Origin: Fimbriimonadaceae bacterium
GTDB taxonomy: Bacteria > Armatimonadota > Fimbriimonadia > Fimbriimonadales > Fimbriimonadaceae
Length of the DNA stretch: 64,000 bases
Reading direction: 5' to 3'
Assembly: GCA_019638675.1 (NCBI GenBank)
Contig: JAHBTE010000001.1
Location: 1,644,605 to 1,708,604 of the forward strand
In this document: positions 13,119 to 61,559 of the stretch, in pieces
Numbering within the stretch: the stretch's first letter is position 1
How the letters are laid out: each line of letters begins with the position of its first letter
The notes under the pieces: model-generated
What the model was told of the DNA's origin: nothing
The model's input: the letters and a program-made list of their open reading frames with translations, nothing else
Databases searched by the model: none
Position numbers and translations under genes: made by a program

Positions 13119-16100
13119 CTAAAAAGTGATCATGTTTGCGGGTTCGGATCTGCTTGCTCCTCCTCCCCATTTTTTTACGTTATCAATATAACCTGGCTTT
13201 GAGTCATTGTACCATTTTCCTCCAGAAAATAGTCCTCGTCGAGCTTTACCTCCCCTAGGAAAAAAGCAAGTGTCTTCCGTTCCCCAAAGTCTCTCAGTAA
13301 TTCTAAACCAAAGCTCTCTGTCTTCTTTATTTGCTCCATCGCAAACCCACAATATAAGTCTCTTCATCCGGCCTTTACCAGCTCGAATTCTATTATTCAT
13401 TACTCTTCTCGTAGTGCGCTCAATGTTACAGACTCCTCCATTGCCCGCATAAACGAATGGAGAGCCGTGACCAAATAATACAACTTCATCGTATTCTGAC
13501 AGTGCTTCAACTAGTTCGTCTTCATTCCTGACTGACTTTACGATTACTTCGTATCCAGCATCCTCATATGCTGTAACAAGAGCTTCCAGAGAAGTACCCG
13601 CATCTTTTTTGACTGGACCTGAAAGATCTCCAATTAATATGATTACCTGTTTTTTTAAACCTTCTGCATCGAAATAGCTGATCGGGTTATTAGAACAGTA
13701 GGAGTACCAGTTCCCCCCGTCTTTAGCTACATCTCGCGTCAAAAAACGTCCAGTATCTCTATCATAATAACGATGACCTAACAGATTCAATCCGGTATCA
13801 GAATCCTGCTGGTAGCCAAACCCGCCTGCATAACCGAACTGGCTCTTCCAAAATCCTGAAGATGAGATATTGTTCCCAAAAGCGTCATATTGCTTGGAAG
13901 CTGAAATCGCACCAGAACTATTTGTTTGGATATCGCTATTCTTCAATGCGGAATGGAATGTGGTCTTGGTCGAACCGCGTTTCTCGCCGCTTGGAGTAAA
14001 GTTTGCAGTTCCATCGCTCAGAACTGGGGCGGTGACGCCAACGCCCGAACGTTTAAACGTTTTGCTACCGCCAGAGTCAGTCATCCCGACCCGTGTATCC
14101 AAGCCATTATATGTAAACGTGTTCGTCGTCATCCCTGGCTTCGTGATAGAAGTAACTCGGGATTCATAGTCATAAGAAAACGCGGTCGTGCCAGAACCCC
14201 GTACGATGCCGGTCGTCCTCCCAGCGGCATCGTAAGTAAATGTCCTCGCATCGCTTCCACCAGTGATCGCAGTTAGTTTGTCAGCATTATCGTATGTGTA
14301 ACTTTCGGTAACGGAGTTCACTGTCCGCGTCAAGCGGTTGCCGTTCGCATCGTACGTATATGCTGCAGCATAGCCCGTGGATTTGGTCTCTTCTATCAAC
14401 TGACCGATATCGTCGTAATCGTAATCGGTCGTGACCCCGCCCTCCACTACTTGCGTTACCTGTGAAGCAAGGTCGAAAGTGTAAACCCGGCTCTGCAAAG
14501 TTGCGTTGCTAGAATCTTTAGTGACAATGCTGGTCACTCGGTTGCGCGAATCATAGGAATACAGTTCGTATGTTCCGTTTGGATTGTCTTTGCGAGACAG
14601 CCTTCCTGCACCATCGTAGGTGTAACTTGAAACATCACTGAACGCATCAGTTGTGGTTGATGGACGACCAGCAGAATCGTAGGTCGTGGTAGTCGTTCCG
14701 ACTCCAACATCAACCATAGTGAGTATCTGCCCTGCGAGGTTATAGGTGTAGTCAATATCTCCTTGAGGAGTATCGAGGTCAGTAATCTCGTTAGCGGCGT
14801 TATATGTCCACGAACTCGTGCCGCTCACGTCCACCATGCTCGTGACGCGACCGCCGTTATCGTAGCTAAATGCTGTGTCGGTCAGCCCAGACGGATAGTC
14901 CACTCCCGTTTGCTGACCTGCGTCATCGTAAGTGTAGAGAATGGTTTGGCTAAGTGGATTAGTATAAGCAGTTGTGTTGCCTTCACCATCGTATGCCCAA
15001 GTTTCGACCGAGCTATCCGGCAAGGTAAGGGTCGCTACCTGTCCACGGTCAGTATATGTGTAAGTTCGGGTGTAACCACGACCATTGGTTATACTGGTCA
15101 GTTCACCAACCGAGTTGTATGAGTAGTTCGTGGTTTCACTGTTCGCGTTGGTTGCGCTGGTGACCAGACCAGTATCATTAATTACTCGGCTTCCCGAGCG
15201 ACCAAGCGGATCTTCTGCGCCAATGATATTGTTTTCCAGATCATAGAAAATTTGAGACACAGCATTGCCTGGCTCCTCAATCTCAATAACCCGACCCCAG
15301 CCATCATAAGTGATGTCGGTCGTGTTAGCGGCGGCATCGGTGGAACTGGTGACACGACCGAGAATATCAAATGTGGCATATGAGTTGATGCTCCCAGGAG
15401 CAACGGTTTGAGTGACATCCCCCTGGCTATTGTAGTAAAGGTAAGAAACCCGACTCAGAGCGTCAGTGACCGTGATTGGATCTCCATCGCCGTTATAAGT
15501 GATCGTTGCAACTGTGCGGCTCAGTCCATCAACCGTTGTTAGTAAGTTACCATTTGAATCGTAGGTGTTTGTCGTGACATTGCTATTCGGATCAGTAGCA
15601 GTCAAGACTTTATTGAATGAATTGTAAGTATATGTCCAGGTTTTGCTCAGCGGGTTTGTAAGTGTCAGGGTATTGCCACTCGAATCGTATGTTGCTGTCC
15701 AAACCTTTCCTCGCCGGTCTGTGTACTGGGTGACATTTTTGTTTGAATCGTACACGTAAGCATCGCTGTAACTCGCTTCATCCACGACACTGGCGACAAG
15801 TCCTGAAGAGTAGTTGTAAACAACAGTTTTGCTGTTTGGCTTGGTCAGGGTAACGCTAGCAGAGCCGTAGGTGTACGTGTACGTTTGGCTAAGCGGATTA
15901 GTAAAGCTTGTTAGATTTTCGCTTGAGTTATATGTGAAAGTCCAAACTTTGCCTCTGCGGTCAGTTTCGGTGAGGATGTTGCTGGCAGAGTCATATGTGA
16001 AGTAGCGGTAGTAAACGATTTCTTGCTCGTTCAGTTGGGGATACCCAATGCTGAGCATATCGTTGTTGGAATCGTAGTCGAAGTACCAATGCCGACCAGC

Positions 16101-17078
16101 GGGGTCTTCAACTTCGCTGATTAAGCCGTTGGTTCCGTATGTAAAGTCGAGGGCGCGACCATAACTATCCTCTATGCTAGTGATCTTCGCACTGCCATTT
16201 CGGTAAATCGTAGTTGTGTTTCCATTGCGGTCGGTGACAGTTGAAAGCCGCCCACCTGGAATAAACGTCATCACCCACTTGGATTTAGTCGTAAGCGTCC
16301 AGACTCCAGTCGTTGCGTTCCGGGTGAGGGTTTCGTAATGACCCGCCGGAGCAACAAACGTGTTTGTCGTGGGTTCGGTAAACGGAACTTCTAAGCCGTC
16401 GCCGTAGCGAACAATTGCCGAGCCTGAGGTGTGAGCAATCTTGACGTCGTAACTATGGCTCCAGCCTTTGCCAAGGTCGTAGCTATAAGCCCCTCGACTA
16501 TTGTGATGAAGATTAAAGGAAACGCCGTTTTGTCCAGGCGCATTCCAACTCACAATTGGGTACATCACATGGCGATTACCCGTGTTGGTGTTTAGGTGTC
16601 CACCGCCCGTTCCACTTCCCGGTTCTTCACCTCCACCCGGCTCGCCGCCTCCGCCCGGTCCACCGCCTTCACCGGGTAAGTCACCACCACCGCCTTCACC
16701 ACCCTCTTGCAGCATCGAAGTACCTAGTAAGGCCGGGATAGGAGTCATAGAAAGAAGGAGATCGCGTTCAGACCAAGGCGCGTCTAGCTTTTCTTGCTGA
16801 CGGGCTTTTTTGAGATCGTTTAGGAGTTTTGGAGTCCATACTCCGCCGCGACCAACCGGGTCTCTTCCTGGGTTCGCGCCTTTGAAAACTTTAGTTGGAC
16901 GATCTGTATGATGTCCAACTGGCTTGCGCCCCATATCCTGGATATGCTGGACGGCTTCGACCATAAGCGGATTGATGCCGGGCGCAGTTGCGCTATAAGC
17001 AAGACTCAAACAGAGTGCAACAGAAAGTGCCCGGAAAAGTGGTCGAGTAGACGAAGCGTGAATAAACGCAATATTCAT
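13119..17078 (-). CDS. RHS/YD-repeat protein with caspase-like C-terminal domain
   Basis: I chose ATG 17078, because it gives a signal peptide (ALSVALCLSLAYS) in a product of about 1319 residues; an upstream ATG at 17165 would add 29. A Gly-rich linker (about residues 120-165) precedes a DUF6531-like entry (WSHSYDVKI) and about 30 YD repeats of the type TxTYDxxGxL. The RHS core ends in LLGHRYYDRDTGRFLTRD and DAEGL. The following 190 residues are non-RHS: VIILIGDLSG, FGHGSP (about 1203) and LILWVCDGA (about 1244). A His in hxGHG and a Cys in hhxxCxGA are the dyad arrangement of caspase-like clan CD peptidases. A small lipoprotein gene follows at 10 bp. Confidence 0.85.
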   Translation of the reverse strand: MNIAFIHASSTRPLFRALSVALCLSLAYSATAPGINPLMVEAVQHIQDMGRKPVGHHTDRPTKVFKGANPGRDPVGRGGVWTPKLLNDLKKARQQEKLDAPWSERDLLLSMTPIPALLGTSMLQEGGEGGGGDLPGEGGGPGGGGEPGGGEEPGSGTGGGHLNTNTGNRHVMYPIVSWNAPGQNGVSFNLHHNSRGAYSYDLGKGWSHSYDVKIAHTSGSAIVRYGDGLEVPFTEPTTNTFVAPAGHYETLTRNATTGVWTLTTKSKWVMTFIPGGRLSTVTDRNGNTTTIYRNGSAKITSIEDSYGRALDFTYGTNGLISEVEDPAGRHWYFDYDSNNDMLSIGYPQLNEQEIVYYRYFTYDSASNILTETDRRGKVWTFTYNSSENLTSFTNPLSQTYTYTYGSASVTLTKPNSKTVVYNYSSGLVASVVDEASYSDAYVYDSNKNVTQYTDRRGKVWTATYDSSGNTLTLTNPLSKTWTYTYNSFNKVLTATDPNSNVTTNTYDSNGNLLTTVDGLSRTVATITYNGDGDPITVTDALSRVSYLYYNSQGDVTQTVAPGSINSYATFDILGRVTSSTDAAANTTDITYDGWGRVIEIEEPGNAVSQIFYDLENNIIGAEDPLGRSGSRVINDTGLVTSATNANSETTNYSYNSVGELTSITNGRGYTRTYTYTDRGQVATLTLPDSSVETWAYDGEGNTTAYTNPLSQTILYTYDDAGQQTGVDYPSGLTDTAFSYDNGGRVTSMVDVSGTSSWTYNAANEITDLDTPQGDIDYTYNLAGQILTMVDVGVGTTTTTYDSAGRPSTTTDAFSDVSSYTYDGAGRLSRKDNPNGTYELYSYDSRNRVTSIVTKDSSNATLQSRVYTFDLASQVTQVVEGGVTTDYDYDDIGQLIEETKSTGYAAAYTYDANGNRLTRTVNSVTESYTYDNADKLTAITGGSDARTFTYDAAGRTTGIVRGSGTTAFSYDYESRVTSITKPGMTTNTFTYNGLDTRVGMTDSGGSKTFKRSGVGVTAPVLSDGTANFTPSGEKRGSTKTTFHSALKNSDIQTNSSGAISASKQYDAFGNNISSSGFWKSQFGYAGGFGYQQDSDTGLNLLGHRYYDRDTGRFLTRDVAKDGGNWYSYCSNNPISYFDAEGLKKQVIILIGDLSGPVKKDAGTSLEALVTAYEDAGYEVIVKSVRNEDELVEALSEYDEVVLFGHGSPFVYAGNGGVCNIERTTRRVMNNRIRAGKGRMKRLILWVCDGANKEDRELWFRITERLWGTEDTCFFPRGGKARRGLFSGGKWYNDSKPGYIDNVKKWGGGASRSEPANMITF

Positions 17079-17302
17079 AGAATCCCAAAACCCTGGAGAA
17101 ACTCCGATATATCGTTGACGTGAATATGGATATTGCAAGTTGCACAAATCCGAATACTTTTCCACATTACAATACTTTTACTTCTTGTCAAGCCGTAGAC
17201 TTTCAGTCGCCCAAAAATCGACTACTGTCACTTTCGTCTACAAAACTGAAACTTTTCCAATCTTCAGACGGTCCAATGGAATGAAGATTTAGGTAACTAC
17301 AG

Positions 17303-17890: not shown

Positions 17891-18491
17891 TAATAGATTA
17901 TCTGTTCTTTACTCCTGTTGGGGAACGTACAGTATCAATCAACTTGAGATGCGAAAAAGGCGAAATTTGCGTTTGGCAACGCTCGGTGGCGACTTTTCTC
18001 TTGCCTGAGGACTACCACTCTACGCAGAAATTCTAGAGAAGGCTACTTATTAATTCGCGAACGACTAGATCCCAAGCTATCGCAGTTAACTTCGCAAATA
18101 ATTCGTTGCACCTACTTTTTTAGCTTCAAAAATCTGAATTAATCGGACGAGATTCGAATATTAAACTTCCGAACAAATGCTTTTAGATTCCGTCATCATA
18201 CTGTTCAAACACTGTAACGACTTTCTGGGAATCAACCAGCTGGATTGCCCGGTCGCGCTGTCCCATTTTGTAAAGCTTAGTAGCTAATTTCGGTGTTCTG
18301 ACGCCAACCGTACCTTTTTCCGAGGAGCCCAAAGATTGAAAGGTAAATCCCTTTCTAACCGCCCTTTCTCAAGTTAACCCCGCTCCGTTGCCGCGTTTCT
18401 GAAAAGGGCTGACTCAAGGCACTTGCTGAGGATAGCGCATAGTTCTATTACAATAGAATCATGCCTCATTTGGCTACGTAGGAATTCCTCT
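17891..18491. other. 600 bp with no supported gene
   Basis: No coding frame, RNA gene or repeat that I can support lies here. It presumably holds the promoter of the large NTPase gene that starts at 18492; frames on the minus strand across 18374-18643 look like shadows of that gene. Confidence 0.5.
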
Positions 18492-21400
18492 ATGACAATT
18501 CGCACAGAATTTGACGCGGTATCGCTAAAGACCTTGTTTGAGTCGAGCGGCCAGGACTTTACTGTCCTCGTGAAGAGGTGGGCACGGGCATATGTTCCTC
18601 TTGTTGGGGGCACTGAGAGCATCAACGGACAGACCAACCTCAAAGATGGAGGTACCGATGGCTACTTCACGTTCCCTGACACATGGCAATGTCCTTTTGG
18701 CTTCAAGCTTGCCGAGAGTTGCGTCGTGCAGCTTAAGGCCGGTGAATTTATTAGGTCGGTCGTAGAAGCAGAGCTTACTGAAGAGGCAGCCGAGGGCAAG
18801 TATCGCATCAGGAATGACATCGAGGACGGCAAGCAAGTGCTTTGGTTCGTCGGCAAGGCATTGGCCGATGGAGACCTCAAACAAGCGGATGCTGAACTCA
18901 ATGCTATTATCGACAAGATAAATCCTGATGCACCCAGAGGGCTTGTTATCGACCTTAACCGGTTGGCCGAGCTCTTATCTGTTACACCTGTCGTAGCCAT
19001 CGAGTATTTTCGCTACCTGCCCGGGTGCGTCACAAGCGAAGTGGAATTAAACAGCAATCGCCACCGGGACTTACCTAATTTTGCGCCTCCACCAGGCCAG
19101 GATGACTTTGAAAAAGAGCTTGTATTAATTGCGCAGAGCGCGGAAGTTGGCAGAAGATTAACATATCGATATGGAGCACCTGGCACAGGAAAAACTAGAA
19201 GGGTTTTGGAAGCAGTTGTCAATACGGATCAACTAAGGGGAACCACGCTGTATTTCCAAAATTCTAAAGAGGCAAAAGTCTTCTTGAATCTCGCCGAGCA
19301 ACATGGGATGAGCGCTTTTATCATCGTGGACGATTATCTAGACGACTCTAACGATGAATCCAGAATTGGGCCGGAAGATGTGCCAGACAACGTTCGTTGC
19401 CTGCTCATAGGGCATGGGCAAACGATTCGAGCTACATATCTCAAAGATCTGGCATTCGAACCACTTGAGGAAGAGGGGCTATTCCGGTTACTAAAGGATC
19501 GGTATCCTACCTTGACTGATGGCGCAATCCTGCATCACATTAAAGAAGCTGGGCAGAACATAAGATTGGCAAACATATTCTGTTCTCGGCTTGGCAATAA
19601 TCTTGAAATCCTTGATATTTTCGACTTACTGATAAGCATTCAGAAAGATAAGCGTAACGTTCGTGACATGGATGTATTTATATGTTTATCGCTAGTGAAG
19701 TTCTTGAAGGCCGATGAAATGCCAGCATTCTGTGAGCTTTCCGGAATAGATGAAGCTCGGTTCAAGGAAGAGTGTAGGTTGTCTTCAACTTCAAATATGC
19801 TCATCCAGGATAATGAGCATGTCAGTTACATAAGTTGCAACAAACTGGCATACCTCACGCTAGTTGATGCGTGGACAAAAAGTCGAAAAACCATTGAGCA
19901 TGTCCTTCGCAATCCTGGCCAATTCCGAGGTCAAATCCTCGAACGATTGAAGGAGCTTCCCGAGTGCGAACAGAAGTCGGAAATGCTCGCTTTTTTTAAA
20001 CCAGCCATAGTAGACCTCACCCTGTCTTCTATGGCCAACGGGATGGGTCATGAATTTGTTCAGCTAATGCTGGCAACGCCTGAAGAATACTTGCCCATCC
20101 TTGTCAAATGCGTCCTCAATGCTGGAGAAGGCATTAAAGAGTGGCTTTATGAAGGTGAAAGATTTGGACGACGTGAGCTGATCGATCCTTTGAAAGACTT
20201 GGCGCAATTCACGCAGTACTTCGAGCAATGCGAAGCTGTGCTGTTTCAATTAGTCAAGTATGAGATTGAAACGCCCTACGTAAACGACTCTACGGCTGCC
20301 TGGTGCGATTGGTTCAGGCCCTACTTCGACTATACGATCTACCCTTATCAGGAGCGGTTGAGCCTGCTCGAGAAACGAATTCAAGATGATCCGCGCACGA
20401 CGATCCTATTGCTTGCGAAGATCATTTCAAACCTTTTCCCGCACACCGGGCTAGGAATTCCTTCCAGGGTTGTAGGGGGAAAGGAAGCTCCGCAAAGGCT
20501 CCACGACCAAAAGCTCTATTTCGCGCCATGCCGTCTGGCCGTCGAAAAGTATCCAAATATCATAATCACGGCATTGAGGGATGCAACTGTTGAAGAAAGA
20601 GAAATTCTCAGCAACGCTGTCGCAGATGGAGCTCTACGTTGGATTTCGTTTTCTGGTGATACGTCTGGGCTGCTTACCATCATGCAGAGCCCGAATTTCT
20701 CAAATGTAGCTCGCCAAAATGTTGAATTCACATTGAAGAGGGTTGCATCGCTGAAAGATTTTCGTGAGAAAGCTCGCGAAGAGCAAGGACGAGACCCGGG
20801 GGAGTCGCCTGCTTACTACGAAAAAATCGACGTCATTCTCAATGCTATCGGCAGACCAGATGATCTGAAGGATTTGGCATTCATGCTCCAGGACGATTTC
20901 ATTTTTCATAAGAATGAAGGGCTATCTCAAGCAGCGGTTGAACTAGGCAAAAGGATAATTGGAAGGGACGACCTGTTTAGGCAGGCGCTTGATACTTTTG
21001 CGGACAAAACTAGCCAAGGCGGGCGCGAACTCGCAAAGCTGTATTGCCCGCTATTTTCGAAGGAACAAAGGGTCGAAGTGCTTCGGGTTTTGGCTCGCAG
21101 CGAAGGTAGTCAGTTTCTATATGCCTTTGTTTATGAGTGCGCTTCCAACGACGAGGAATTCAAGGATGCGGCCCTCAAGACGGCAGATTCTATCAGAGAT
21201 GAGAATTGGGTCGTCGCCCTGAACCTCTTCGACATGCTTGATCCAGCGGCAAGTTTTAAACTCCAAGCGAGCTTGGTTGGCTCGGAGATTTTGCCGGTTT
21301 CGGTTTTGGGGAGAACCTATTTGCGGGATTCGAACGATGTGCCAGAGGAATTATGGGAACTGATTGATATCGCTCATTCGAGAATGCTAGGCGGCGATCT

Positions 21401-22151
21401 TGATGCCGCTAACGCATGCCTTCACATTTCGGGCGAACTCATAAGGGTTGGCATGATTGACCACAAGGTCGTTGGACTCGCCTTGACGGCGTTAGAGTCA
21501 GCAAGTGCGGGTAGAGACACTATGACCGACTACGTTTGGAAGGAAGTTGCGGAGCAATTAGTCGAATCGGCTCCCGAAAAGGTCATCGAGATTGCATCCC
21601 GGGGCGAACTCCGCGAATACTCGAAGTCGGTCGAACTGTTGGCTTCTTTGGCTCCCCAATACGGCGAGTTGGTGCTTGCAAGGTTAGAAAACCGCTTCGC
21701 TAACGCCTACAATGCGCCCTATCTGCTCCACGGATCTTTGGAATCAGTCGTGAATAGGATCGATCCAGCAGTATTTCAAAAGTGGATTGCGCGTCAACCT
21801 GATTCCGTTCTGGTGCATGTAGCAGGACACTTGCCAAACCCTGAGTTAGCTGACGGTATGCCGGTAATCCATTCAAACACCTTCACATACTGGAGCCAGG
21901 TTCTAAAGAATTCGCCAATTTTCAAGGAAGCTCTCGACGAATTCGTCGCGCATACATGTAGCTTCGGATGGACAGGCTATGGGGTGGAGCTGTTCTCTCA
22001 GCATATAGAGCTAGCAAATAAGCTAATCAGTCACGAACTCGATGGATTAAGAGAGTGGGCAGTGAAATTTAAGGCGTCTGCTGAGGAGCATCTCCTTCAA
22101 GCTGAAAAGAGTAGAACGTTGGATCAGGCTAGGGAGGATACTCGCGAATAG
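18492..22151 (+). CDS. Mrr-like nuclease + P-loop (STAND-type) NTPase, Avs-like defence candidate
   Basis: I chose ATG 18492, giving 1219 residues; an earlier ATG at 18423 adds 23 unconserved ones. Residues 40-85 read like a PD-(D/E)XK nuclease of the Mrr kind: GGTDG (Asp56), then VVQLKAG with the Q-x-K site (80-82). A Walker A motif GAPGTGKT lies at 228-235 and an acidic Walker B strand FIIVDDYLDD at about 276-285. From about 450 to the end the protein is helical and repeat-like. An N-terminal nuclease, central NTPase and long repeat sensor is the plan of Avs antiviral STAND proteins. It is tail to tail with a second such gene inside the tRNA-Lys element. Family identity is inference. Confidence 0.7.
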   Translation: MTIRTEFDAVSLKTLFESSGQDFTVLVKRWARAYVPLVGGTESINGQTNLKDGGTDGYFTFPDTWQCPFGFKLAESCVVQLKAGEFIRSVVEAELTEEAAEGKYRIRNDIEDGKQVLWFVGKALADGDLKQADAELNAIIDKINPDAPRGLVIDLNRLAELLSVTPVVAIEYFRYLPGCVTSEVELNSNRHRDLPNFAPPPGQDDFEKELVLIAQSAEVGRRLTYRYGAPGTGKTRRVLEAVVNTDQLRGTTLYFQNSKEAKVFLNLAEQHGMSAFIIVDDYLDDSNDESRIGPEDVPDNVRCLLIGHGQTIRATYLKDLAFEPLEEEGLFRLLKDRYPTLTDGAILHHIKEAGQNIRLANIFCSRLGNNLEILDIFDLLISIQKDKRNVRDMDVFICLSLVKFLKADEMPAFCELSGIDEARFKEECRLSSTSNMLIQDNEHVSYISCNKLAYLTLVDAWTKSRKTIEHVLRNPGQFRGQILERLKELPECEQKSEMLAFFKPAIVDLTLSSMANGMGHEFVQLMLATPEEYLPILVKCVLNAGEGIKEWLYEGERFGRRELIDPLKDLAQFTQYFEQCEAVLFQLVKYEIETPYVNDSTAAWCDWFRPYFDYTIYPYQERLSLLEKRIQDDPRTTILLLAKIISNLFPHTGLGIPSRVVGGKEAPQRLHDQKLYFAPCRLAVEKYPNIIITALRDATVEEREILSNAVADGALRWISFSGDTSGLLTIMQSPNFSNVARQNVEFTLKRVASLKDFREKAREEQGRDPGESPAYYEKIDVILNAIGRPDDLKDLAFMLQDDFIFHKNEGLSQAAVELGKRIIGRDDLFRQALDTFADKTSQGGRELAKLYCPLFSKEQRVEVLRVLARSEGSQFLYAFVYECASNDEEFKDAALKTADSIRDENWVVALNLFDMLDPAASFKLQASLVGSEILPVSVLGRTYLRDSNDVPEELWELIDIAHSRMLGGDLDAANACLHISGELIRVGMIDHKVVGLALTALESASAGRDTMTDYVWKEVAEQLVESAPEKVIEIASRGELREYSKSVELLASLAPQYGELVLARLENRFANAYNAPYLLHGSLESVVNRIDPAVFQKWIARQPDSVLVHVAGHLPNPELADGMPVIHSNTFTYWSQVLKNSPIFKEALDEFVAHTCSFGWTGYGVELFSQHIELANKLISHELDGLREWAVKFKASAEEHLLQAEKSRTLDQAREDTRE

Positions 22152-22461
22152 GCAAGAAACATTGCAAACGTTTGACAATGAATCCACCCACTAAGAGGAG
22201 TGATTACGAGCGCAATTCGATGAATGCTTACGAGCGTATAAGGCATTTTAGAATTGGAATAGCGTGAAGATGAAAAGTCGTTTAAATTTTCCACTTGTAA
22301 CTGACTTTTTGTTATCGCGTCCAGTTCGGTGTACTAGCATCTTTTAGGGCGAAACTGGGATTTTGTATGAGCTCAAATTATGACCCAATCGAACGGGATT
22401 CGAACTCACCGAGCGTGGTAATCGTTAGGTAGCCGAAGCTAAGTTTTTGCCTAACAGCGGC
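22152..22461. other. Spacer between convergent NTPase genes
   Basis: About 310 bp separate the two stops. I see no gene and no clear terminator hairpin with a T-run. A short stretch near 22393-22410 resembles the T-loop side of a tRNA but does not fold. Confidence 0.5.
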
Positions 22462-25400
22462 CTACATTTCTTCAGCCAGCTTAGCAGCGAGGTATCTGTC
22501 CAGGGGTTTCACTAGAAGATTGTTCTTCATAAGGAACTGGTCTGGGTAATTTTCAAGTACAGCAACATTCTCTTTAACTGCAACGAGGACGTCGTTCCAA
22601 GGGGTTTCCAGGCGTTGTGTCGGTACAAATTCCTTCAAGGCGCTAAGAGCCTCGTAGAACGACTCGGCGAGCAGCTCAGAACTTGACCATTCTGTGAAAA
22701 AGGTTGAAGCGCCAGGGGTTCTCGCCTCCACGAGAGAAGCCGCCTTGGCGTAGGCGAGCTTCTCTCCAGCTTCAAGAAATGGTTGCACCAAGTCCAACTC
22801 GGGTCGACTGGGATAAGACTGCAAGTTGAACAGAGCATTCGGCAGTTCACCTGGATCATCCATTGGCCAAATGATTAGCGATTCTGGTTCCTTGCCCGCG
22901 ATAAAATCGCGTATCACGGGGGCAAGCGCCCGATACACCTGCGGGGAGACACGTCTTCCATTACGAACTGGTATTGTGATGAAGTTGCCCTGAAACGAAT
23001 CAAAAGCTTCGGCGAGTACCATGCAAACACGCAGAGCCTCGGTTACGAGATTCTCAATCTCTTCAACCTCAAGAGTGAACAGCCAACTCGGCGTATCAAA
23101 TCTCTTGGCTGTACCTCCGGGTGTGAAAAGTAACGCTTTCTTAGCAAGCGTAACCCGTCGAGCAAGCTCTGAATTCGCTTCTTCTAATTTTCGGTGAAGA
23201 AATTGCGCCGTATTAGAGGACAGGGAGTTTAAAGGCATTTGACTTTGCTTTACCTGTTCTCTGCGCTCCACAGATCCGTAAAGTCTTTCAGTTGCAGTCT
23301 GCAGCCATGTGGCAAAAGCTTTACCATTATCGAGACCAGCCTTTTGCCGGACAGTGTCAAGCGATTCCTGAGCGGATTGTGAGAGATTATGCACATCTCG
23401 AAGACCAAATAGAATAACCTGTTTCCGGTTGACTTGTCCTTCGTCCTTGCTTAGCAGTTCGTCAAGAAGATTTCTAACGACATGATAAACGGCATCAAAG
23501 AGATCGTCGACTATTCTGAGATCTGTTCGCTGTTCATCAGACAAGGTAGAGGGTAATTGGAGACGTGCTTCTTTGCGTAGTTCAAACTCATCTATGAGGT
23601 TTGCACACGCATCTTTTTCGATACGCACGATATTACGTCCTTCATCCTGCAGTTTGAGAAAGCGCGTGAAGTAGTCTAGTATTTCTGCTGCTGATTCGAT
23701 TGCCGAACGTTGGGTCAGCTCCCAGCCAACAATGCCATCCGTTGCGGTGACGACCTCTATTGCGGCTGTCCATGGCTTGTTGAGTGTACTGATTTCCTCC
23801 GAGTACCAATTCTCGCTTGGGCCGTCCTTATGGGCGTCATCAAACGCCAAAGGGATTGGCAACTTTAGAGGACGAACTGGTTTCGTTGCGTAGCTACCGT
23901 ATCCAGGCAGCAAGCCTTTTGCTGCCTGCAACCGAGAGACGGCTTGCTCGTTGTCTCTAACCTCATTGTAAGGGTCGACAATGAAGGATAAGACCAGCTT
24001 ATCGTCGTCCTCTTCAATGGACAGGGATCGGGTTTCCTGCACGAGGTATGTCACCACTTCGTCGCGCCTTTCAAGAACAAAGGCTTCGTACAGTCCACCC
24101 TGAGTCTCCTGCACGAGAAATGATAAACGAAGCGCTAATGGCAGTGGCAAAGTAGACAATATTTCGCGCCAATTGAGAGCGTCTAGCAGAGCCTTTACTT
24201 TGTCGTTCTGACCACTTAGCCAGAGCGCTTTTGCTAACCCAAGGGTGTCGCCCACGCTCCTATTCATGTCTGAAACCCGCGCGTACTCCATTGCCAGTAC
24301 TGCCTCGAAGCGCGACGCATAGTCGCGCCCGGGCACGGACTCAACCGTCTTTCGAAGAATTTCGAATCGTTCTCCATCCATATTATCGCGCATGAGTTCC
24401 AGGATCCCGCCTTGACCTTGAAAGGGAGGCGTGAAAAATGGGAATAGGTTGACGGCTGCCTGACCAACTCTTTCCTCCAGCGTTTTAAGCAGAGGCAAAC
24501 ACGTTTGCGCTTGACGCACCTCTGAGCCTGAATAGGCTGCTTCCCAGATAGGATTAAAGCCTGTGTAGTTGATACGTTTGACTAGCGTACTTACAACCTG
24601 ATCGGACTTGGCATTTGTCCGTGCAAGAAGCGAGTAGGTGAACTCAGGCAAGTCTCCGTCCTCGATAAGCTGCAAGAGCTTCGCCACACTAGAATCGACC
24701 CCATATGGGTGCAAAAGCTTTACTAAGTGCTGACTTCTAACTGGATGGAGTCCGGAGCAAAGGCCATCATGTACAACTAGATATTCATCTTCAATTCCTT
24801 TGAGTGCAAGCTGGGCGTCGCCTTGGAATTCAATAATCTTAAGCAACCCGGTGGCTTCGACACGTAAATTCATTTGGTCTGCCAGACTGACGAGACGAAC
24901 ACATTCCACAGCTCCAGGATCACGGCTATTGAGGTTTTCGATTTGCCTGCTTAGTCTCTCTTCTAGCAACTCACCTTGCGTGAGCAAGTACACGTACTCG
25001 ATCAGAAGTTTGGCTTCACTCACTCTCGCATAAGCTTCGTCAGCTGTTTGGACTGAATGATGCAGTGCATTTGATCTCTGGAGATTGACGAAGATTTCAC
25101 GCGCTTCCTCTAACTCTAAAGTCGGAGTGACGCGTTTCCAATTGACTCGACTCAGATCACCGGCAAAAAGCTTCCAATCTTCCTCTCTTGATGTAACAAT
25201 GATTTCGACCGGCTCGCTTGCCAGAGCAGTAGCAAGCTCGTTCCACGCGCCTTGTGCACGGGACAGATTGTCGATAAACAGCGATACGCCCAGTCCCAAC
25301 TGCAGTCTAAATCGAACGAACAAGGCGATAGCCGCGGCGTCCTCTGCCGTTCGGCATACCTTAACCTCGTAGACAAAATTCTCTGTTGTGTAGTCCGAAA

Positions 25401-26355
25401 GATGGCGTAGGGCTAAGGCTGACTTACCTTGACCGCTCGATGAGATGATTGCGGTGACATTCGAATCCTTTAGGGAGTGCTCTAAGTCCTGGTGTGCCTT
25501 CGCTCGACGAACGTCCTTTTGTGCGGCGATGTGTCCCGCACGTGACGCCCTACCTTTGTAAAAATCGTCCGCATCAGGGTCATCCACATTGAAGGACACG
25601 GGAATGACGTATCCCTGAGCTACTGCTGGATTCGTGAGTCCCGCCTCAAACTGAGACTTGACGTCCGCAAAGACCTTCGCGATCATTGCCTGTGATATTG
25701 TCTCTCTCGTTCCACTCCACTTATACATCTGGAAAGCGAGCGCGTGCAAGAACGATTCGTGGGCAGCCTGCGTTAAACCAACTAGCTCGGTAATCATGCG
25801 AACTACCTGGAGACAGAGGTCGGTAGTCTGCACCGTGACGCAAGTCAAATGAGCGGTGAGGACTCTCCGCATGTGCGCATCTCCCTTTGCCACCTTGTTG
25901 ATACGATCTCTGAGTTTTGCGGGCATGGATCGTCGCTGAGGATCGACAAGCCAGTTTTCGACCTCGGGCGGGTAGCCAGTCGCCGTTACGATGCAACAGG
26001 ACGTGACGTTCTTTTCACGGATCACGTCTGCGAACGATCGAAATATCTTCTCTAGCTCACCGTAATCTAGTTTACTGGTCTCACATTTGAGTTGGTATAG
26101 TGCGAGACTTCCGTCGTCTGCCTCCACTTCCAGATCCTCATAGCGTTCCGTGCCCAACTTTGACCTTAGATAACCGTCTAGACTCAGACCTAGAAGACAA
26201 CCGTAAAGTGAGTGGTAGAGAGCACCTCTGTGATTGCCTGCTCCATGGAAGCGCTTCTTGAATAGAGCATCAATCTTTTTTTGTTCCGGTGAAAACATAC
26301 CAAGAACATTATCCCTCCCAGATTGACTGGTCAGCCGATCAAATTCACCTGCCAA
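22462..26355 (-). CDS. DUF4297-like nuclease + STAND NTPase, Avs-like defence candidate
   Basis: The product is up to 1297 residues, starting at TTG 26355; ATG 26298 is an alternative (residue 20). The N-terminus has GAGNHRGALYHSLYGCLL followed by EDLEVEADDGSLALYQLK (73-90). This G...G-x-x-Y-Q/H plus D-x(n)-Q-x-K arrangement resembles DUF4297/Cap4-type PD-(D/E)XK effector domains. A Walker A motif SSSGQGKS lies at 305-312, a Walker B strand VSLFIDNL at about 356-363, and a sensor EIIVTSREEDW at 384-394, which is typical of STAND NTPases. The remaining 850 residues are mostly helical, suiting a ligand-sensing repeat region. It is convergent with another nuclease-NTPase gene of similar size. 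Antiphage role is inferred. Confidence 0.7.
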   Translation of the reverse strand: MAGEFDRLTSQSGRDNVLGMFSPEQKKIDALFKKRFHGAGNHRGALYHSLYGCLLGLSLDGYLRSKLGTERYEDLEVEADDGSLALYQLKCETSKLDYGELEKIFRSFADVIREKNVTSCCIVTATGYPPEVENWLVDPQRRSMPAKLRDRINKVAKGDAHMRRVLTAHLTCVTVQTTDLCLQVVRMITELVGLTQAAHESFLHALAFQMYKWSGTRETISQAMIAKVFADVKSQFEAGLTNPAVAQGYVIPVSFNVDDPDADDFYKGRASRAGHIAAQKDVRRAKAHQDLEHSLKDSNVTAIISSSGQGKSALALRHLSDYTTENFVYEVKVCRTAEDAAAIALFVRFRLQLGLGVSLFIDNLSRAQGAWNELATALASEPVEIIVTSREEDWKLFAGDLSRVNWKRVTPTLELEEAREIFVNLQRSNALHHSVQTADEAYARVSEAKLLIEYVYLLTQGELLEERLSRQIENLNSRDPGAVECVRLVSLADQMNLRVEATGLLKIIEFQGDAQLALKGIEDEYLVVHDGLCSGLHPVRSQHLVKLLHPYGVDSSVAKLLQLIEDGDLPEFTYSLLARTNAKSDQVVSTLVKRINYTGFNPIWEAAYSGSEVRQAQTCLPLLKTLEERVGQAAVNLFPFFTPPFQGQGGILELMRDNMDGERFEILRKTVESVPGRDYASRFEAVLAMEYARVSDMNRSVGDTLGLAKALWLSGQNDKVKALLDALNWREILSTLPLPLALRLSFLVQETQGGLYEAFVLERRDEVVTYLVQETRSLSIEEDDDKLVLSFIVDPYNEVRDNEQAVSRLQAAKGLLPGYGSYATKPVRPLKLPIPLAFDDAHKDGPSENWYSEEISTLNKPWTAAIEVVTATDGIVGWELTQRSAIESAAEILDYFTRFLKLQDEGRNIVRIEKDACANLIDEFELRKEARLQLPSTLSDEQRTDLRIVDDLFDAVYHVVRNLLDELLSKDEGQVNRKQVILFGLRDVHNLSQSAQESLDTVRQKAGLDNGKAFATWLQTATERLYGSVERREQVKQSQMPLNSLSSNTAQFLHRKLEEANSELARRVTLAKKALLFTPGGTAKRFDTPSWLFTLEVEEIENLVTEALRVCMVLAEAFDSFQGNFITIPVRNGRRVSPQVYRALAPVIRDFIAGKEPESLIIWPMDDPGELPNALFNLQSYPSRPELDLVQPFLEAGEKLAYAKAASLVEARTPGASTFFTEWSSSELLAESFYEALSALKEFVPTQRLETPWNDVLVAVKENVAVLENYPDQFLMKNNLLVKPLDRYLAAKLAEEM

Positions 26356-26776
26356 TCTTTGAATTCAAACTTGTCCGGACTTTCCCTTTTCCACACCTCT
26401 GAAGTCCTCTCTTCGACTGCCCAAGCGCAATCACGTTTGCTGAGACTACTACTTTAGTTCTAAGTGCGTCCACTTCGGTACACCGTTTGCAGATGAAGTT
26501 TGAACTATTTCTAAACGGATTTCAAAGGCGGAATTAATGCGTATTTAGGGTGCGCTTAAAGCCGAACTCGCCGAATGAAACTCGGCTTCAGCCAGTTCCC
26601 TCGCCTCTGTTGCCGCAAGTGCGCTAATTATGCATGTCAGTCTTGCCAAGAGAGTAAAAAGCACTTCAGGATATGCAGAGGGGTCGTTGCAGTACTTGAT
26701 GAAAAAGCCAGATGCTTGCGGAAAATTGAAGCACGCGCCACCAGAATCGAACGGTGTCAAACATGGCGCAAACGAA
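26356..26776. other. 420 bp intergenic, no supported gene
   Basis: This stretch lies between the NTPase start and the integrase stop. Small frames exist on both strands (26545-26799) but none resembles a known protein and their codon use is unconvincing. A weak inverted repeat (AAGCCGA / TCGGCTT) spans 26559-26588. Confidence 0.4.
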
Positions 26777-27928
26777 CTAAGAACCAACCGTCTTGCTAGC
26801 GGTTCCTAAGACAGCATCCATCCGATCCGCCGCGTCTCTTTGGAGAGTTGGCATAACGTGAGCATACGTATTGAGCGTGAGGCCAATCTGAGAGTGCCCG
26901 AGGATCTCCATAATAGTTCTCGCATCTGTACCTTGTGCTAAGAGCAACGTTGCGCAAGTATGGCGTAAATCGTGGAACCTGAGCTTTGGAAGATCGTTCT
27001 CCTTAAGGATTTTTGCTAGTGTTCGTCTCACGTTACGAATCTCAGCGGGAGTGCCAACGCTTGACGTAAAAACGAAGTCGCCTTCCTGCCAAAGATCAGA
27101 ATTGAAGATTCTCATTTCGAGTTGCTTAACACGGTGACGGCGGAGAGAATCTATTGCGAAGGCAGGGAGAGGGATTGTTCGCCTGGCCCTGGCTGTTTTT
27201 GGCTCAACGAGCTTGATTCCTCCACCAATTCGGCTGAGTTGGTACTTCACTCTCAAAGTTCCGGCTTCCAGGTCAATGTCTGACCACCTGAGACCGAGAG
27301 CTTCGCTGATCCGCAAACCTACGGCAATCGCAACCGTGAAAAGAGCTTCGTGTTTCGTATTGCTTACGGCTGTTATGAGTTTTCTAGCTTGTTCAGGTGT
27401 CAGGTATTCAAATTCAAATGTTTGCTTATTGGGAGTCGTTACCAGGGTAGCCGGATTGCGAACGATAAGTTCCCACTTCATAGCTTGATTGAGAGCGGCT
27501 CTTAGAACTCTCCGCAGGTGTTCCACTGAGATTCCTGTTTCTGCTTTGGCATTGAGAAAACTTTGAATCACTTGTGGGGTGAGTTTTTCGAGAGTGTACG
27601 TTCCGAGCCCTGGGATCAGATGGTTTCGGATGATCTGCTCATAACTTCGGTAGGTTGTATCTCGGACCTTTTGCTTGGCTACGTCGTTTAGCCAGTGATT
27701 GAGGAACTGAGCAACCGATTGCGAGCGAGTATTGACCGTAACTCCTTGGTCGTGCTTTCGCTGGAGTTCTGTTAGCTTCTTTCTGACCTCTGCTTTCGTT
27801 GTACCGTAGACAACCTTTCGCAATCTTCTGTGGTTGACCGTATCGTAGCCGAGGCTGATTTTAGCTACCCACCTGCCGTCTGCTCGCTGGAAAATCGAGC
27901 CTTCGCCGTTGCTTCTCTTATCTGCCAT
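26777..27928 (-). CDS. int: Tyrosine recombinase/integrase of the element
   Basis: The 383-residue product has an AP2-like arm-binding N-terminus (GEGSIFQRADGRWVAKISLGYD), a SAM-like core-binding domain (about 65-160, WLNDVAKQKVRDTTYRSYEQII) and a catalytic domain with all key residues: Arg in VGLRISEALGL, Lys in the beta-hairpin region, HDLRHT (His and Arg), LGH and Tyr in NTYAHV. It catalyses site-specific integration and excision, here presumably at the tRNA-Lys 3' end. It overlaps the upstream zinc-finger gene by 11 bp, so both are probably expressed together. It lies about 7 kb from the right end, not adjacent to att. Confidence 0.93.
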   Translation of the reverse strand: MADKRSNGEGSIFQRADGRWVAKISLGYDTVNHRRLRKVVYGTTKAEVRKKLTELQRKHDQGVTVNTRSQSVAQFLNHWLNDVAKQKVRDTTYRSYEQIIRNHLIPGLGTYTLEKLTPQVIQSFLNAKAETGISVEHLRRVLRAALNQAMKWELIVRNPATLVTTPNKQTFEFEYLTPEQARKLITAVSNTKHEALFTVAIAVGLRISEALGLRWSDIDLEAGTLRVKYQLSRIGGGIKLVEPKTARARRTIPLPAFAIDSLRRHRVKQLEMRIFNSDLWQEGDFVFTSSVGTPAEIRNVRRTLAKILKENDLPKLRFHDLRHTCATLLLAQGTDARTIMEILGHSQIGLTLNTYAHVMPTLQRDAADRMDAVLGTASKTVGS

Positions 27929-30241: not shown

Positions 30242-30598
30242 ATGGAAACGGCAAATAGTTTGGAGGTGCTAACTCGGCGGATTTCTGAGTTTGTCGAAGC
30301 TCGCGATTGGAGCAAGTTCCACAACCCAAAAGATCTGGCTATTTCTCTGTCGCTTGAAGCAAACGAAGTATTAGAGCTCATGCAGTGGAAAAATGGTGAT
30401 GAGTTATTGATCCATTTAGAATCAGAAAACGTTGAGTTAGGAAAGGAACTTTCTGATGTCCTTTACTGGACGTTACTTCTAGCTCATTCACAAGGGATTG
30501 ACCTAGCAACCGCTTTTGAGTTGAAAATGCAGGAAAATGAGGAGAAATATCCTGTATCGCTGTCCAAAGGCTCCAGCAAGAAATACGATCAACTTTGA
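30242..30598 (+). CDS. MazG-like nucleotide pyrophosphohydrolase
   Basis: The 118-residue product has the MazG-like helical core: LAISLSLEANEVLELMQW with the E-x-x-E metal site (about residues 38-47) and ELGKELSDVLYWTLLLAH with the second E-x-x-D site (about 64-80). These enzymes cleave (d)NTPs to NMP and pyrophosphate. Its 3' end overlaps the convergent DUF2075 gene by 10 bp. The pairing of a nucleotide hydrolase with a nuclease-helicase inside a defence-rich element suggests stress or defence work, though housekeeping of the nucleotide pool is equally possible. Confidence 0.8.
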   Translation: METANSLEVLTRRISEFVEARDWSKFHNPKDLAISLSLEANEVLELMQWKNGDELLIHLESENVELGKELSDVLYWTLLLAHSQGIDLATAFELKMQENEEKYPVSLSKGSSKKYDQL

Positions 30599-32469
30599 AT
30601 ATCCGAGACGAATTTGCGAGAGGAATGCTTTAAATACTCATTTGTTTCTGGGTCAACCGACCAAATGAAGCATCCCTTTTGACCCCTTGTCATTAGTGTC
30701 CGGTATGTGTTTTTAATTACCAAGTCAGCTTTGAAGTTTGCCTCATCTGGCGAGGATCTTAGCAAAGACTTGAAGCCCTTAACTGAGGAGTCAGTTTTGG
30801 CTCGCTTGCTCGCATCGGTGATTATCTTCCCATCCCTAACAATTAAATCGGGTCCGATTAGAACGCCAACAAAATCCAACTCCAGTCCCTGGCAAGTATG
30901 AATACAACCTATTTCGTGAACAGAATTAGGCTTGATCAGCCAAAGGCTTCCGTCATCCTGAAGATTCCATCTCGCAAAGAAGTTGTACTCCGGAAGTACT
31001 ATATCGACAAGTTGCGGTGACTGCTTACTGGGCCACTCCCAGCAATATCCCGCAACCATACGTGACCGATTGTTGAATTCATTTAGAGAAATTATTTTAT
31101 CGCGAAGTTGATTTGGTGTTTCGCATACTAAGAACTCATAGTCGATGCCTTCCAGAGTCGGATTTGCGGTTTCCCGAATCTGCAACGTGTTGTCTATCCA
31201 CGCCATATAGCCGTCAGAGCCATTGCATCTAAACTGCGACTCCAACTGAAGACTTGTTACTGAAGCTCCACACGATTCCGCCCATTTTTGAATCTCAGCT
31301 TTGCTTCCAATATCCTTGAACGTTACACGTTGATCTTCGTCAATGAAAAATACCGAAAACCTCGAAGCTTCGATGATTTCGAGAACCTGATTTATCCCAA
31401 GGTTTTGGAATAGTCCAGACTTTTCGTTGAGCCGGTGAGCTTCGTCGATGATCAAAGAGTCATAAAGGTTTTTCTCAACCTCTCTAAACGCACCGCTACC
31501 AACAAAAAGTTGGCTAATTCTGGACTTCGAAAATGTTCCTGATAACTTGCTTTCGTAGACAGCACGGGGAGCAGCGTTCCTAGTTACGTACTGTGCTATT
31601 TGTCCTCGCTTTGTAAGTTCGACGAGAAGATTGATAGCGACAACGGACTTTCCTGTTCCAGGGCCACCTTCAATAATAAGTACTTGTTTCTTGCCTGTCT
31701 TTGCGATGCTCGCCAAATGTAAAGCCGTTTCATAAACAACCTTCTGATCGTCTATTAGTGTGAACTCAGGGTTCCCGGTCAACATCGCTGCGATTGCTTC
31801 CGAGAGCCCTTTAGATGGCCTGATTCTTCCATTATCAAGTAACTCAAGCGTCCTTCCCGAGTCTCCGTGTTCAACGTGGCTCTTTACGAAGTGTTGGAGC
31901 CTTAATCCATCTGACTTCAAAAATGCTGGTGCACGGTTAGTATATGAAGTATAGAAAGGGTCGTGGATTACATGGCTAGATGTACAGTTATGAAGATATG
32001 CACAAGCTTGCACTTTTATGTTTTCAGTTTGTACTGCCTCATTGAAGTCTTGCAGGACTTGAGCATATGTCCATGCTTGATACGATGGATGACTAGTTTC
32101 ACGCACTGCTCCCCCAACAAAAGTCCGGACTATGCCATCCATAGAAGTAACTTCTGCGTCGGACCATTGTTTCAATTCGATGATTAGCGCATTCAACTGG
32201 TTCTGTTTGTCGACACCCGATAGCAGGATGTCAATCCGGCGACCAGTAGGGGCAAGGCAAAATTCAATTGCTACGCCAGCATCCCCAGGAATGTCTCTGT
32301 CAGCTAGAACGTTGCTCATAGCTTGAAGAGAATTCTTCCAAGAGGCTAGTTCGGATGCTCCGACTGACTTGTTCAGTCTTCGACGGAATTCGGAGTGAAC
32401 AATTTCTTCAATCTGATTGGAAAGAATATCAGAGAGAAATCCCTTTACATTTGACCTATAGACGACCAC
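30589..32469 (-). CDS. DUF2075 helicase-like ATPase with N-terminal nuclease-like region
   Basis: The 626-residue product has a P-loop GGPGTGKS (about residues 265-272), the DUF2075 helicase signs LIIDEAHRL (Walker B), FFIDEDQRVTF, LESQFRCNGSDGYMAW, GCIHTCQGLELDFVGV and NTYRTLMTRGQKG. Before it, GRRIDILLSG followed by LIIELKQWS (about 75-102) has the D-x(n)-E-x-K spacing of a PD-(D/E)XK nuclease. Start is GTG 32469. The gene is tail to tail with, and overlaps, the MazG-like gene. DUF2075 proteins are superfamily 1-like ATPases often found in defence islands. A nucleic-acid target is inferred. Confidence 0.8.
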   Translation of the reverse strand: MVVYRSNVKGFLSDILSNQIEEIVHSEFRRRLNKSVGASELASWKNSLQAMSNVLADRDIPGDAGVAIEFCLAPTGRRIDILLSGVDKQNQLNALIIELKQWSDAEVTSMDGIVRTFVGGAVRETSHPSYQAWTYAQVLQDFNEAVQTENIKVQACAYLHNCTSSHVIHDPFYTSYTNRAPAFLKSDGLRLQHFVKSHVEHGDSGRTLELLDNGRIRPSKGLSEAIAAMLTGNPEFTLIDDQKVVYETALHLASIAKTGKKQVLIIEGGPGTGKSVVAINLLVELTKRGQIAQYVTRNAAPRAVYESKLSGTFSKSRISQLFVGSGAFREVEKNLYDSLIIDEAHRLNEKSGLFQNLGINQVLEIIEASRFSVFFIDEDQRVTFKDIGSKAEIQKWAESCGASVTSLQLESQFRCNGSDGYMAWIDNTLQIRETANPTLEGIDYEFLVCETPNQLRDKIISLNEFNNRSRMVAGYCWEWPSKQSPQLVDIVLPEYNFFARWNLQDDGSLWLIKPNSVHEIGCIHTCQGLELDFVGVLIGPDLIVRDGKIITDASKRAKTDSSVKGFKSLLRSSPDEANFKADLVIKNTYRTLMTRGQKGCFIWSVDPETNEYLKHSSRKFVSDIQS

Positions 32470-61483: not shown

Positions 61484-61559
61484 TGGCGGCCCCGGAGGGA
61501 ATCGAACCCCCGACTCACTCCTTAGGACGGAGGCGCTCTATCCACTGAGCTACGAGGCC
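61484..61559 (-). tRNA. tRNA-Arg (anticodon CCT), CCA encoded
   Basis: The minus strand from 61559 to 61484 folds as a cloverleaf: acceptor GGCCTCG / CGGGGCC, D-arm GCTC...GAGC, anticodon loop GTCCTAA (CCT), T-loop TTCGATT and encoded CCA. Its 3' half is copied at 52310, so it is the integration target of the metal island, with the element on the 3' side. Confidence 0.95.

What the first reader, a model, noticed from the sequence alone, without database searches (positions are those of the whole stretch)
18492..26355. Two giant nuclease-NTPase-repeat proteins, tail to tail, on one mobile element
Both products (about 1219 and 1297 residues) start with a probable PD-(D/E)XK nuclease (GGTDG...QLK; EDLEVEADDG...QLK), have a central P-loop NTPase (GAPGTGKT; SSSGQGKS with VTSREEDW sensor) and a very long helical C-terminus. 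This is the design of Avs-type STAND antiviral sensors. The two belong to different nuclease groups (Mrr-like and DUF4297-like) and are not close copies, so the element seems to carry two independent sensors. I cannot match either to a named Avs type, so they may be new ones.
Basis: partly seen in the sequence, partly recalled or inferred. Interest (0 to 1): 0.85.

Follow-up and report, generated by a model that had tools for sequence, protein, structure and literature searches.

The report
Two giant putative phage-sensor genes
Two very large bacterial genes, pointing at each other, most likely encode single-protein alarms that sense an invading virus and cut DNA; each seems to sit in its own swappable unit bounded by short repeats resembling the end of a transfer-RNA gene.

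Summary
In detail: two intact genes, 18492-22151 (+, 1219 aa, 'P1') and 22462-26355 (-, 1297 aa, 'P2'), lie tail to tail. P2 is well supported as a nuclease-STAND protein: relatives match Cap4/DUF4297 and nSTAND5 profiles; its model matches LmuA, HerA-DUF4297, AbpA and Cap4 nucleases at the N-terminus, and Avs3, Avs5, SAMD9 and Avs4 overall. P1 has the same layout with invariant motif residues; its family is related by profile to the A protein of PD-lambda-4, but the B partner is absent and the nuclease is only inferred. Neither matched a named Avs type. 'One mobile element' is not supported: a same-genus genome shares only the 4.3-kb P1 block at its P1 locus, with a SIR2 giant in P2's place. 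Repeats derived from the tRNA-Glu 3' end bound the units, and the same 19-nt motif lies beside tRNA-Glu in four of eight genus genomes (not this one), partly with defence cargo. Best reading: two independent single-gene abortive-infection sensors in exchangeable units. Proteins: new variants of a known kind; the cassette array, if real, is the newer part. Neither phage activity nor mobility was tested.

The parts
18492..22151 (+). P1 gene, 1219 aa: putative nuclease - P-loop NTPase - long helical-repeat protein, PD-lambda-4_A-like
18492..18986 (+). P1 N-terminal domain, residues about 1-165; motif D52GGTD56G ... Q80LK82; model order H-E-E-E-H-E-H-E, as in PD-(D/E)XK cores (typical order recalled)
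19173..19196 (+). P1 Walker A (GAPGTGKT, residues 228-235); Walker B-like D280
20004..22091 (+). P1 helical repeats, residues about 505-1200, HEAT/ARM-like in the model
22462..26355 (-). P2 gene, 1297 aa: Cap4/LmuA-type nuclease - STAND NTPase - long, mostly helical C-terminus
25633..26250 (-). P2 nuclease domain, residues about 36-241 (E70...D74...Q88xK90); matches LmuA Z 15.3, HerA-DUF4297 Z 14.6, AbpA Z 13.6, Cap4 Z 12.5
25420..25443 (-). P2 Walker A (SSSGQGKS, residues 305-312)
24583..25755 (-). P2 STAND region, residues about 201-591; matches SAMD9 Z 16.7 and EfAvs5 Z 15.2
18120..22405 (+). P1 block shared with a same-genus genome (83% nucleotide identity, 4.29 kb) while the flanks differ there
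18143..18158 (-). Left border of P1 block: degenerate inverted copy of the tRNA-Glu 3' end (2 mismatches in 16)
22317..22335 (+). 19-nt boundary motif between P1 and P2 (GCGTCCAGTTCGGTGTACT)
22389..22404 (-). Inverted tRNA-Glu 3'-end copy (2 mismatches in 16), right edge of P1 block
26466..26484 (+). 19-nt boundary motif upstream of P2 (GCGTCCACTTCGGTACACC), direct repeat of 22317-22335
26777..27928 (-). Tyrosine recombinase (Phage_integrase 5.4e-32), just outside the P2 unit; whether it moves either gene is unknown

Best explanation
P1 and P2 are two independent single-protein antiviral sensors of the STAND (NLR-like) kind. In the resting cell each is inactive; the long C-terminal part binds an invader's protein; the STAND NTPase then exchanges nucleotide and oligomerises; the clustered N-terminal PD-(D/E)XK-type nuclease domains cut DNA and stop the infection, probably at the cost of the cell. 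Shown here: gene integrity, conserved active-site and Walker residues, nuclease and STAND folds for P2 (by model and profile), layout for P1, defence-type neighbours of several relatives. Inferred: trigger, oligomerisation, DNA cutting, altruistic outcome. Each gene seems to be carried as its own unit bounded by direct repeats derived from the 3' end of tRNA-Glu, and such units differ between loci of the genus (comparative evidence; the enzyme that would move them is not identified).
For: P2: profile of 11 members hits AbpA 1.5e-6, LmuA 1.2e-5, Cap4 0.04 among PDB sequences; Cap4_nuclease in 6 of 11 (best 4.8e-6) and nSTAND_NTPase5 in 10 of 11 members (best 5.8e-10) at E<=0.1; model matches Avs3 5.4e-11, EfAvs5 2e-10, SAMD9 5.1e-9, Avs4 9.9e-8 by Foldseek and LmuA Z 15.3, SAMD9 Z 16.7, EfAvs5 Z 15.2. 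P1: PD-Lambda-4_A in 7 of 8 members, best 1.9e-25; conserved motif residues; Avs4 at Foldseek rank 3, 1.4e-5, 1576 columns; dN/dS 0.16. Context: of seven relatives' loci whose large neighbours I scanned, five have a defence-type neighbour (L022, L026, L032, L033, L036). Units.
Against: P1's own profile hit is weak (17.3 bits; E 0.029 in the whole-genome search); no nuclease profile hits P1 or its 7 aligned relatives at E<=0.1; its model is of low confidence (mean pLDDT 65, pTM 0.37, NTPase partly below 50), and its Avs4 match does not stand above unrelated eukaryotic helical-repeat proteins. P2 itself has no Cap4 or nSTAND5 hit, only nSTAND3 at 0.042, and no PADLOC hit; its model is poor over much of the part beyond residue 580. 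TM-scores to Avs chains are low (0.14-0.17 over the query). No sequence similarity to an Avs chain of the PDB at E<=10. Two scanned relatives' loci have no clear defence neighbour: L031 (histidine kinase) and L029 (ClpB-like AAA protein, which PADLOC calls PDC-M37B/DolB). No experiment; PADLOC candidate names are not tested functions.
Confidence: 0.7

Rival explanations
1. The proteins sense nucleic acid or DNA damage rather than a phage protein, working like Lamassu, Hachiman or HerA-DUF4297 (whose nuclease domain P2 shares), with the C-terminal part as a scaffold.
For: P2's nuclease domain is closest to LmuA, HerA-DUF4297, AbpA and Cap4; 8 of 11 family members match an LmuA profile (P2 itself does not).
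Against: No LmuB, HerA or Hachiman helicase hit among the ten window proteins scanned with PADLOC; the protein has its own STAND module, matched by Avs3, Avs5 and Avs4.
Confidence: 0.2
2. P1 is not a nuclease: its N-terminal domain is a different or non-catalytic effector, and only P2 is a nuclease-STAND protein.
For: No nuclease profile hit for P1 or 7 relatives; low-confidence model; K82 is Arg in one of 8 members.
Against: D52, D56, Q80 in 8 of 8; D56 and Q80/K82 on the second and third strands of an H-E-E-E-H-E order.
Confidence: 0.2
3. P1 and P2 are two parts of one system carried together on one integrated element with the adjacent tyrosine recombinase.
For: Convergent neighbours with an integrase gene 422 bp beyond P2; tail-to-tail giants also occur elsewhere (P1 relative with a SIR2 giant in L025; a split P2 relative with a NACHT/HEAT giant in L033).
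Against: Of 291 genomes, 8 match P1 and 4 match P2 (this genome counted in both), and only this one has both; G153 has P1 without P2; a boundary motif lies between them.
Confidence: 0.1
4. The boundary repeats are leftovers of ordinary island integrations at tRNA-Glu (att sites of past elements), not a cassette system.
For: Serine recombinase genes sit at tRNA-Glu in this genome (Pfam Resolvase 1.2e-18) and, by reading the ORFs, in G154 and G157; tRNA 3' ends are classical integration sites (established knowledge); the window's own borders are degenerate.
Against: The units seen hold one to a few genes without a recombinase and follow one another, up to four boundary motifs at one locus, on the strand of the tRNA.
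Confidence: 0.45

Closest known systems
Avs3 / Avs4 / Avs5 (AVAST STAND antiviral proteins)
   Same: Order effector - STAND - long C-terminus; the P2 model's two best Foldseek matches are Avs3 and EfAvs5, P1 has Avs4 at rank 3. Nuclease effectors of Avs1-Avs4 and their triggers (terminase, portal) as read in passages of PMC12931631.
   Different: No Avs chain at E<=10 with either family profile against PDB sequences; no Avs-named PADLOC hit; trigger unknown.
PD-lambda-4 (found by phage selection in E. coli, Vassallo et al. 2022)
   Same: 7 of 8 members of the P1 family match the PADLOC A-protein models, best 1.9e-25.
   Different: No B component in this genome; P1 itself matches weakly, best stretch 79 residues. 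The passages read of PMC9519451 do not describe this system; a table in PMC10952713 lists it under P-loop NTPase.
Lamassu LmuA, HerA-DUF4297, AbpA, CBASS Cap4 nucleases
   Same: P2 N-terminal domain: Z 15.3, 14.6, 13.6, 12.5.
   Different: In P2 the nuclease is fused to its own STAND module; no partner of those systems among the ten window proteins scanned.
Human SAMD9
   Same: P2 STAND region, Z 16.7 over 313 residues.
   Different: Similarity spans P2 residues about 201-591 only; effector differs.
Integron cassettes, tycheposons, tRNA-attached genomic islands
   Same: Units bounded by direct repeats at a tRNA 3' end.
   Different: Gene-sized units without their own recombinase in the cases seen; no search for attC or IntI was made. 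Comparison rests on recall; for tycheposons only a search listing was seen.

Membership tests
Avs (AVAST) | N-terminal effector domain, nuclease in types 1-4 | tested here: met
   For P2. For P1 inconclusive: motif and low-confidence model only.
Avs (AVAST) | Central STAND NTPase | tested here: met
   P2: nSTAND5 in 10 of 11 members, STAND matches. P1 weaker: Walker residues 8/8, nSTAND5 in 2 of 8 members.
Avs (AVAST) | Sequence kinship to a named Avs type | tested here: not met
   No Avs chain in the complete hit lists of profiles A1 and A2 against PDB sequences at E<=10; no Avs-named PADLOC hit among 8 and 11 members at E<=0.1 (that PADLOC holds Avs models is recalled). Distant kinship is not excluded.
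Avs (AVAST) | Direct recognition of a conserved phage protein | not testable with these tools
   needs phage challenge
PD-lambda-4 | A protein related to the PADLOC models | tested here: met
   Family level: 7 of 8 members, best 1.9e-25. P1 itself 1.9e-4, best stretch residues 559-637, and 0.029 in the genome search.
PD-lambda-4 | B protein present (A and B models in PADLOC) | tested here: not met
   PDLC03992 (PD-Lambda-4_B): no match in the whole genome at E<=1; it rings in 3 of 14 control genomes.
Lamassu | LmuA-type Cap4/DUF4297 nuclease | tested here: met
   P2 domain by fold and family profile; P2 alone has no PADLOC hit.
Lamassu | SMC-like LmuB partner (recalled) | tested here: not met
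   No LmuB hit among the ten window proteins scanned, which include both neighbours of P2; farther and smaller ORFs were not scanned.
Mrr-like nuclease (P1) | Mrr catalytic-domain profile | tested here: not met
   No Mrr-named Pfam family for P1 at E<=1 or in 8 members at E<=0.1.
One mobile element holding both genes | Both genes shared as one block by relatives, with one pair of ends | tested here: not met
   The P1 locus of G153 shares only 18120-22405 and G153 has no P2 match; boundary motif between the genes.

The most novel reading that the evidence does not exclude
The 3' end of tRNA-Glu in this Armatimonadota genus is the anchor of serial, recombinase-free, gene-sized cassettes bounded by a tRNA-mimicking 19-nt element (GCGTSYACTTCGGTGTACC, in several copies followed by an inverted tRNA-3'-end copy), through which giant immune sensors are swapped as single exchangeable modules: an integron-like immune-gene exchange system built on a tRNA end rather than on attC sites. 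P1 keeps its place while its tail-to-tail partner differs (P2 here, a SIR2 giant in a congener).
Probability: 0.3. Interest if true: 0.8.

Novelty: new variant of a known kind. Interest (0 to 1): 0.55.

Why it matters
It extends the Avs/NLR-like design to two families in a little-studied phylum, gives the poorly described PD-lambda-4_A family a likely architecture, and offers a concrete, testable boundary sequence for how large single-gene immune sensors may be exchanged between neighbours.

Tried and rejected
Rejected: (1) both genes on one element with the adjacent tyrosine recombinase. (2) P1 as Mrr family. (3) The tRNA-like stretches at 22.4 and 26.7 kb as close copies of a place elsewhere in this genome: DNA searches gave themselves and otherwise hits of E 0.4 or more; the link to tRNA-Glu came from the congener.

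Led nowhere: the search for related loci with P1 in genome contigs and with A3, A5, A6 in viral contigs; A7 and A8 brought back contigs already seen; phage records for P1 and for its relative L028; PDB phmmer with P1, P2 and the P2 N-domain (only E 0.89 and 1.4 or worse). A degenerate DLAQFxxYFE pattern over genome contigs gave 11 stretches, of which 2 hold P1 relatives, both contigs already known from the phylum search. The structural re-alignment of the P1 model tested mainly residues 505-1200, so the absence of nuclease rows there says nothing. Papers: in 10 searches no listed title or abstract start names these proteins or this array; only passages of PMC9519451, PMC10952713, PMC12931631 and PMC12799240 were read (abstract and opening of PMC9519451).
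Full report
What is there. P1 (18492-22151, +) and P2 (22462-26355, -) are intact, convergent genes of 1219 and 1297 codons, each single copy in a 2.85-Mb genome. The phylum is Armatimonadota: two same-phylum contigs with P1 relatives (G044, G078) have the same lengths and give the same matches as named records of an uncultured Chthonomonas and an uncultured Armatimonadetes bacterium.

P2. The protein alone gives little (Pfam nSTAND3 at 0.042, PADLOC none), but its family does. Eleven aligned members keep E70, D74, Q88, K90, the P-loop and R390/E392 without exception; at E<=0.1, 6 of 11 match Cap4_nuclease, 10 of 11 nSTAND_NTPase5 and 8 of 11 an LmuA model. The family profile finds AbpA (1.5e-6), LmuA (1.2e-5) and Cap4 (0.04) among PDB sequences (the best row, 6c2u at 3e-8, is a short P-loop protein and uninformative). 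An AlphaFold2 model of residues 20-1219 from five sequences has block means mostly 60-90 for the nuclease and STAND parts and is poor beyond residue about 580, apart from a stretch near 710-830 (mean 59, pTM 0.43). Foldseek's first eleven rows are Avs3, EfAvs5, SAMD9 and Avs4 chains; Apaf-1, NOD2 and Cap4 follow among many AAA+ proteins. VIA-align gives LmuA Z 15.3 over 194 residues for the N-terminus, and SAMD9 Z 16.7 over 313 and EfAvs5 Z 15.2 over 210 for the STAND part; Hsp104/ClpB-type AAA+ proteins reach Z 14.2. TM-scores to Avs chains over the query are low (0.14-0.17), in a multi-domain chain with a poor C-terminus.

P1. No Pfam family is hit and no NCBIfam hit is convincing. PADLOC's PD-Lambda-4_A hits P1 weakly (1.9e-4; 0.029 in the whole-genome search) and 7 of 8 family members, best 1.9e-25. 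D52, D56, Q80, A83, G233, K234 and D280 are invariant in 8 of 8, K82 in 7 of 8. The model (four rows from three genomes, mean pLDDT 65, pTM 0.37) has H20-37, E41-44, E56-60, E76-82, H88-96, E115-120, H126-143, E151-153, with D56 and Q80/K82 on successive strands, as in REase-like nucleases (fold order recalled). Its last 700 residues are helical repeats; Foldseek's list is mostly eukaryotic helical-repeat proteins (importins, CRM1, CAND1, spliceosome parts) with Avs4 third at 1.4e-5, not above them. So P1 is probably the same kind of protein, but its nuclease is inferred, and 'Mrr-like' is not supported.

Two families, not copies. Of 291 genomes of the phylum searched with each protein, 8 match P1 and 4 match P2, this genome counted in both; it is the only one in both lists. 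Elsewhere, P1 itself finds one cyanobacterial plasmid, and its relative L028 finds 14 plasmid records of cyanobacteria, rhizobia, haloarchaea and Thalassobaculum; P2 finds 11 plasmid records of five phyla, one phage record and, through alignments, four IMG/VR contigs. I scanned large neighbours, chosen by size, at seven relatives' loci: five have a defence-type neighbour, namely type I restriction genes directly before the P1 relative (L026), PDC-M54A giants (tail to tail in L033, in tandem in L036), a giant with a Cap4-type effector, NACHT and HEAT matches (L022), and a TOTE-type primase-helicase (L032); L031 has a histidine kinase and L029 a ClpB-like AAA protein, which are not clear defence genes. 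The plasmid record L016 lists a type I R subunit and an N-6 DNA methylase near the P1 relative.

Not one element. In the 20 kb around the P1 relative of the same-genus genome G153 only 18120-22405 of the window is shared (83% identity over 4.29 kb); elsewhere in G153 the RHS region of the window has partial matches, and P2 has none. There the P1 relative (84% protein identity) is tail to tail with a 1457-aa protein carrying a SIR2 domain (7e-11) instead of P2. The G153 block is bounded by an 88-nt direct repeat (75% identity) that includes the last bases of an intact tRNA-Glu. A 19-nt part, GCGTSYASTTCGGTDYACC, recurs in the window at 22317 (between P1 and P2) and 26466 (111 bp before the P2 start), and in G153 on both sides of the SIR2 gene; at up to 3 mismatches 3 of 100 dinucleotide shuffles of the window reach two matches, and none of 200 of L025. 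With all specified bases matched, a related pattern occurs in this genome only at those two places; with one mismatch two more appear, against five for the reversed control.

tRNA-Glu as hotspot. Nine tRNA-Glu-like 3' ends were found in the eight genomes of the genus held, this one included (eight exact, one with a mismatch). In the 6-20 kb read around or beside each, the motif occurs at up to 3 mismatches at four of nine (G152 four times, G153 twice, G155 once, G156 once) and not at the other five (G000, G151, G154, G157, second site of G155); with the two in the window, all ten are on the strand of the tRNA or of P1, and the reversed motif occurs nowhere in the same ten sequences. Four sites (two in the window, two in G153) were used to write the motif, so the six in G152, G155 and G156 are the independent ones; one of the G152 sites has 3 mismatches. 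Cargo between tRNA and boundaries: in G156 a 580-aa HEC-07 protein (5.4e-45); in G152 trypsin-like, aspartyl-protease, acetyltransferase and Ig-domain genes and, before the weakest boundary, a PDC-M65A/B pair; in G155 a 687-aa protein without a match at E<=0.01. Cargo is thus not only defence. In this genome tRNA-Glu lies 91 kb from P1 and carries a serine recombinase gene without the motif in the 15 kb read, so P1 and P2 are displaced from the anchor; how is unknown. The left border of P1 in the window is degenerate, and the border at 26466 lacks a clear inverted half.

Verdict. P2: nuclease-STAND sensor, likelihood about 0.85; P1: the same kind, about 0.65. The mechanism is by analogy with Avs proteins (passages of PMC12931631). 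Membership in a named Avs type is not claimed. The bold reading is the cassette system (0.3); remnants of ordinary islands remain at least as likely. Within P1 the synonymous divergence from G153 runs from 0.32 (residues 481-800) to 1.18 (200-480), hinting at mosaic exchange inside the gene.

Noticed in passing
window 51558, 52325 and 61484-61559: Repeats of the tRNA-Arg(CCT) 3' part at 51558 (imperfect) and 52325 and the intact tRNA-Arg at 61484-61559, on the same strand: perhaps a second tRNA-associated island of about 9-10 kb with ORFs of 398, 513, 1032 and 704 aa.
   Followed up: no
window 30589-32469 (-): Schlafen group 3 helicase-domain protein (PF09848, 8.2e-95) that also matches PDC-S41 (1.9e-15) and Nhi/AbiO models: another possible defence gene near the integrase.
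   Followed up: no
L025 5097-9470: 1457-aa SIR2-domain giant bounded by the same motif, tail to tail with the P1 relative in G153.
   Followed up: partly
L101 98-1678 and 3934-4995: Serine recombinase at tRNA-Glu of the own genome; a nearby 353-aa ORF reads like a C5 cytosine methyltransferase (by eye).
   Followed up: partly
window 17974-18131: Stretch just left of the P1 block is matched at 71-74% on two contigs of G157, one of them running into a boundary-like site.
   Followed up: partly
window 18492-22151 versus L025: Synonymous divergence differs almost fourfold along the P1 gene (0.32 to 1.18), suggesting recombination around the NTPase region.
   Followed up: no
window 13119-17165 (-): RHS-repeat protein of 1348 aa left of the P1 block; related stretches occur in several congeners, several times in some.
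   Followed up: no
window 7514-12224 (-): DnaE-type polymerase and IMS-family (ImuB-like) genes beside an SRAP gene at 6602-7189: a likely mutagenesis/repair cluster.
   Followed up: no
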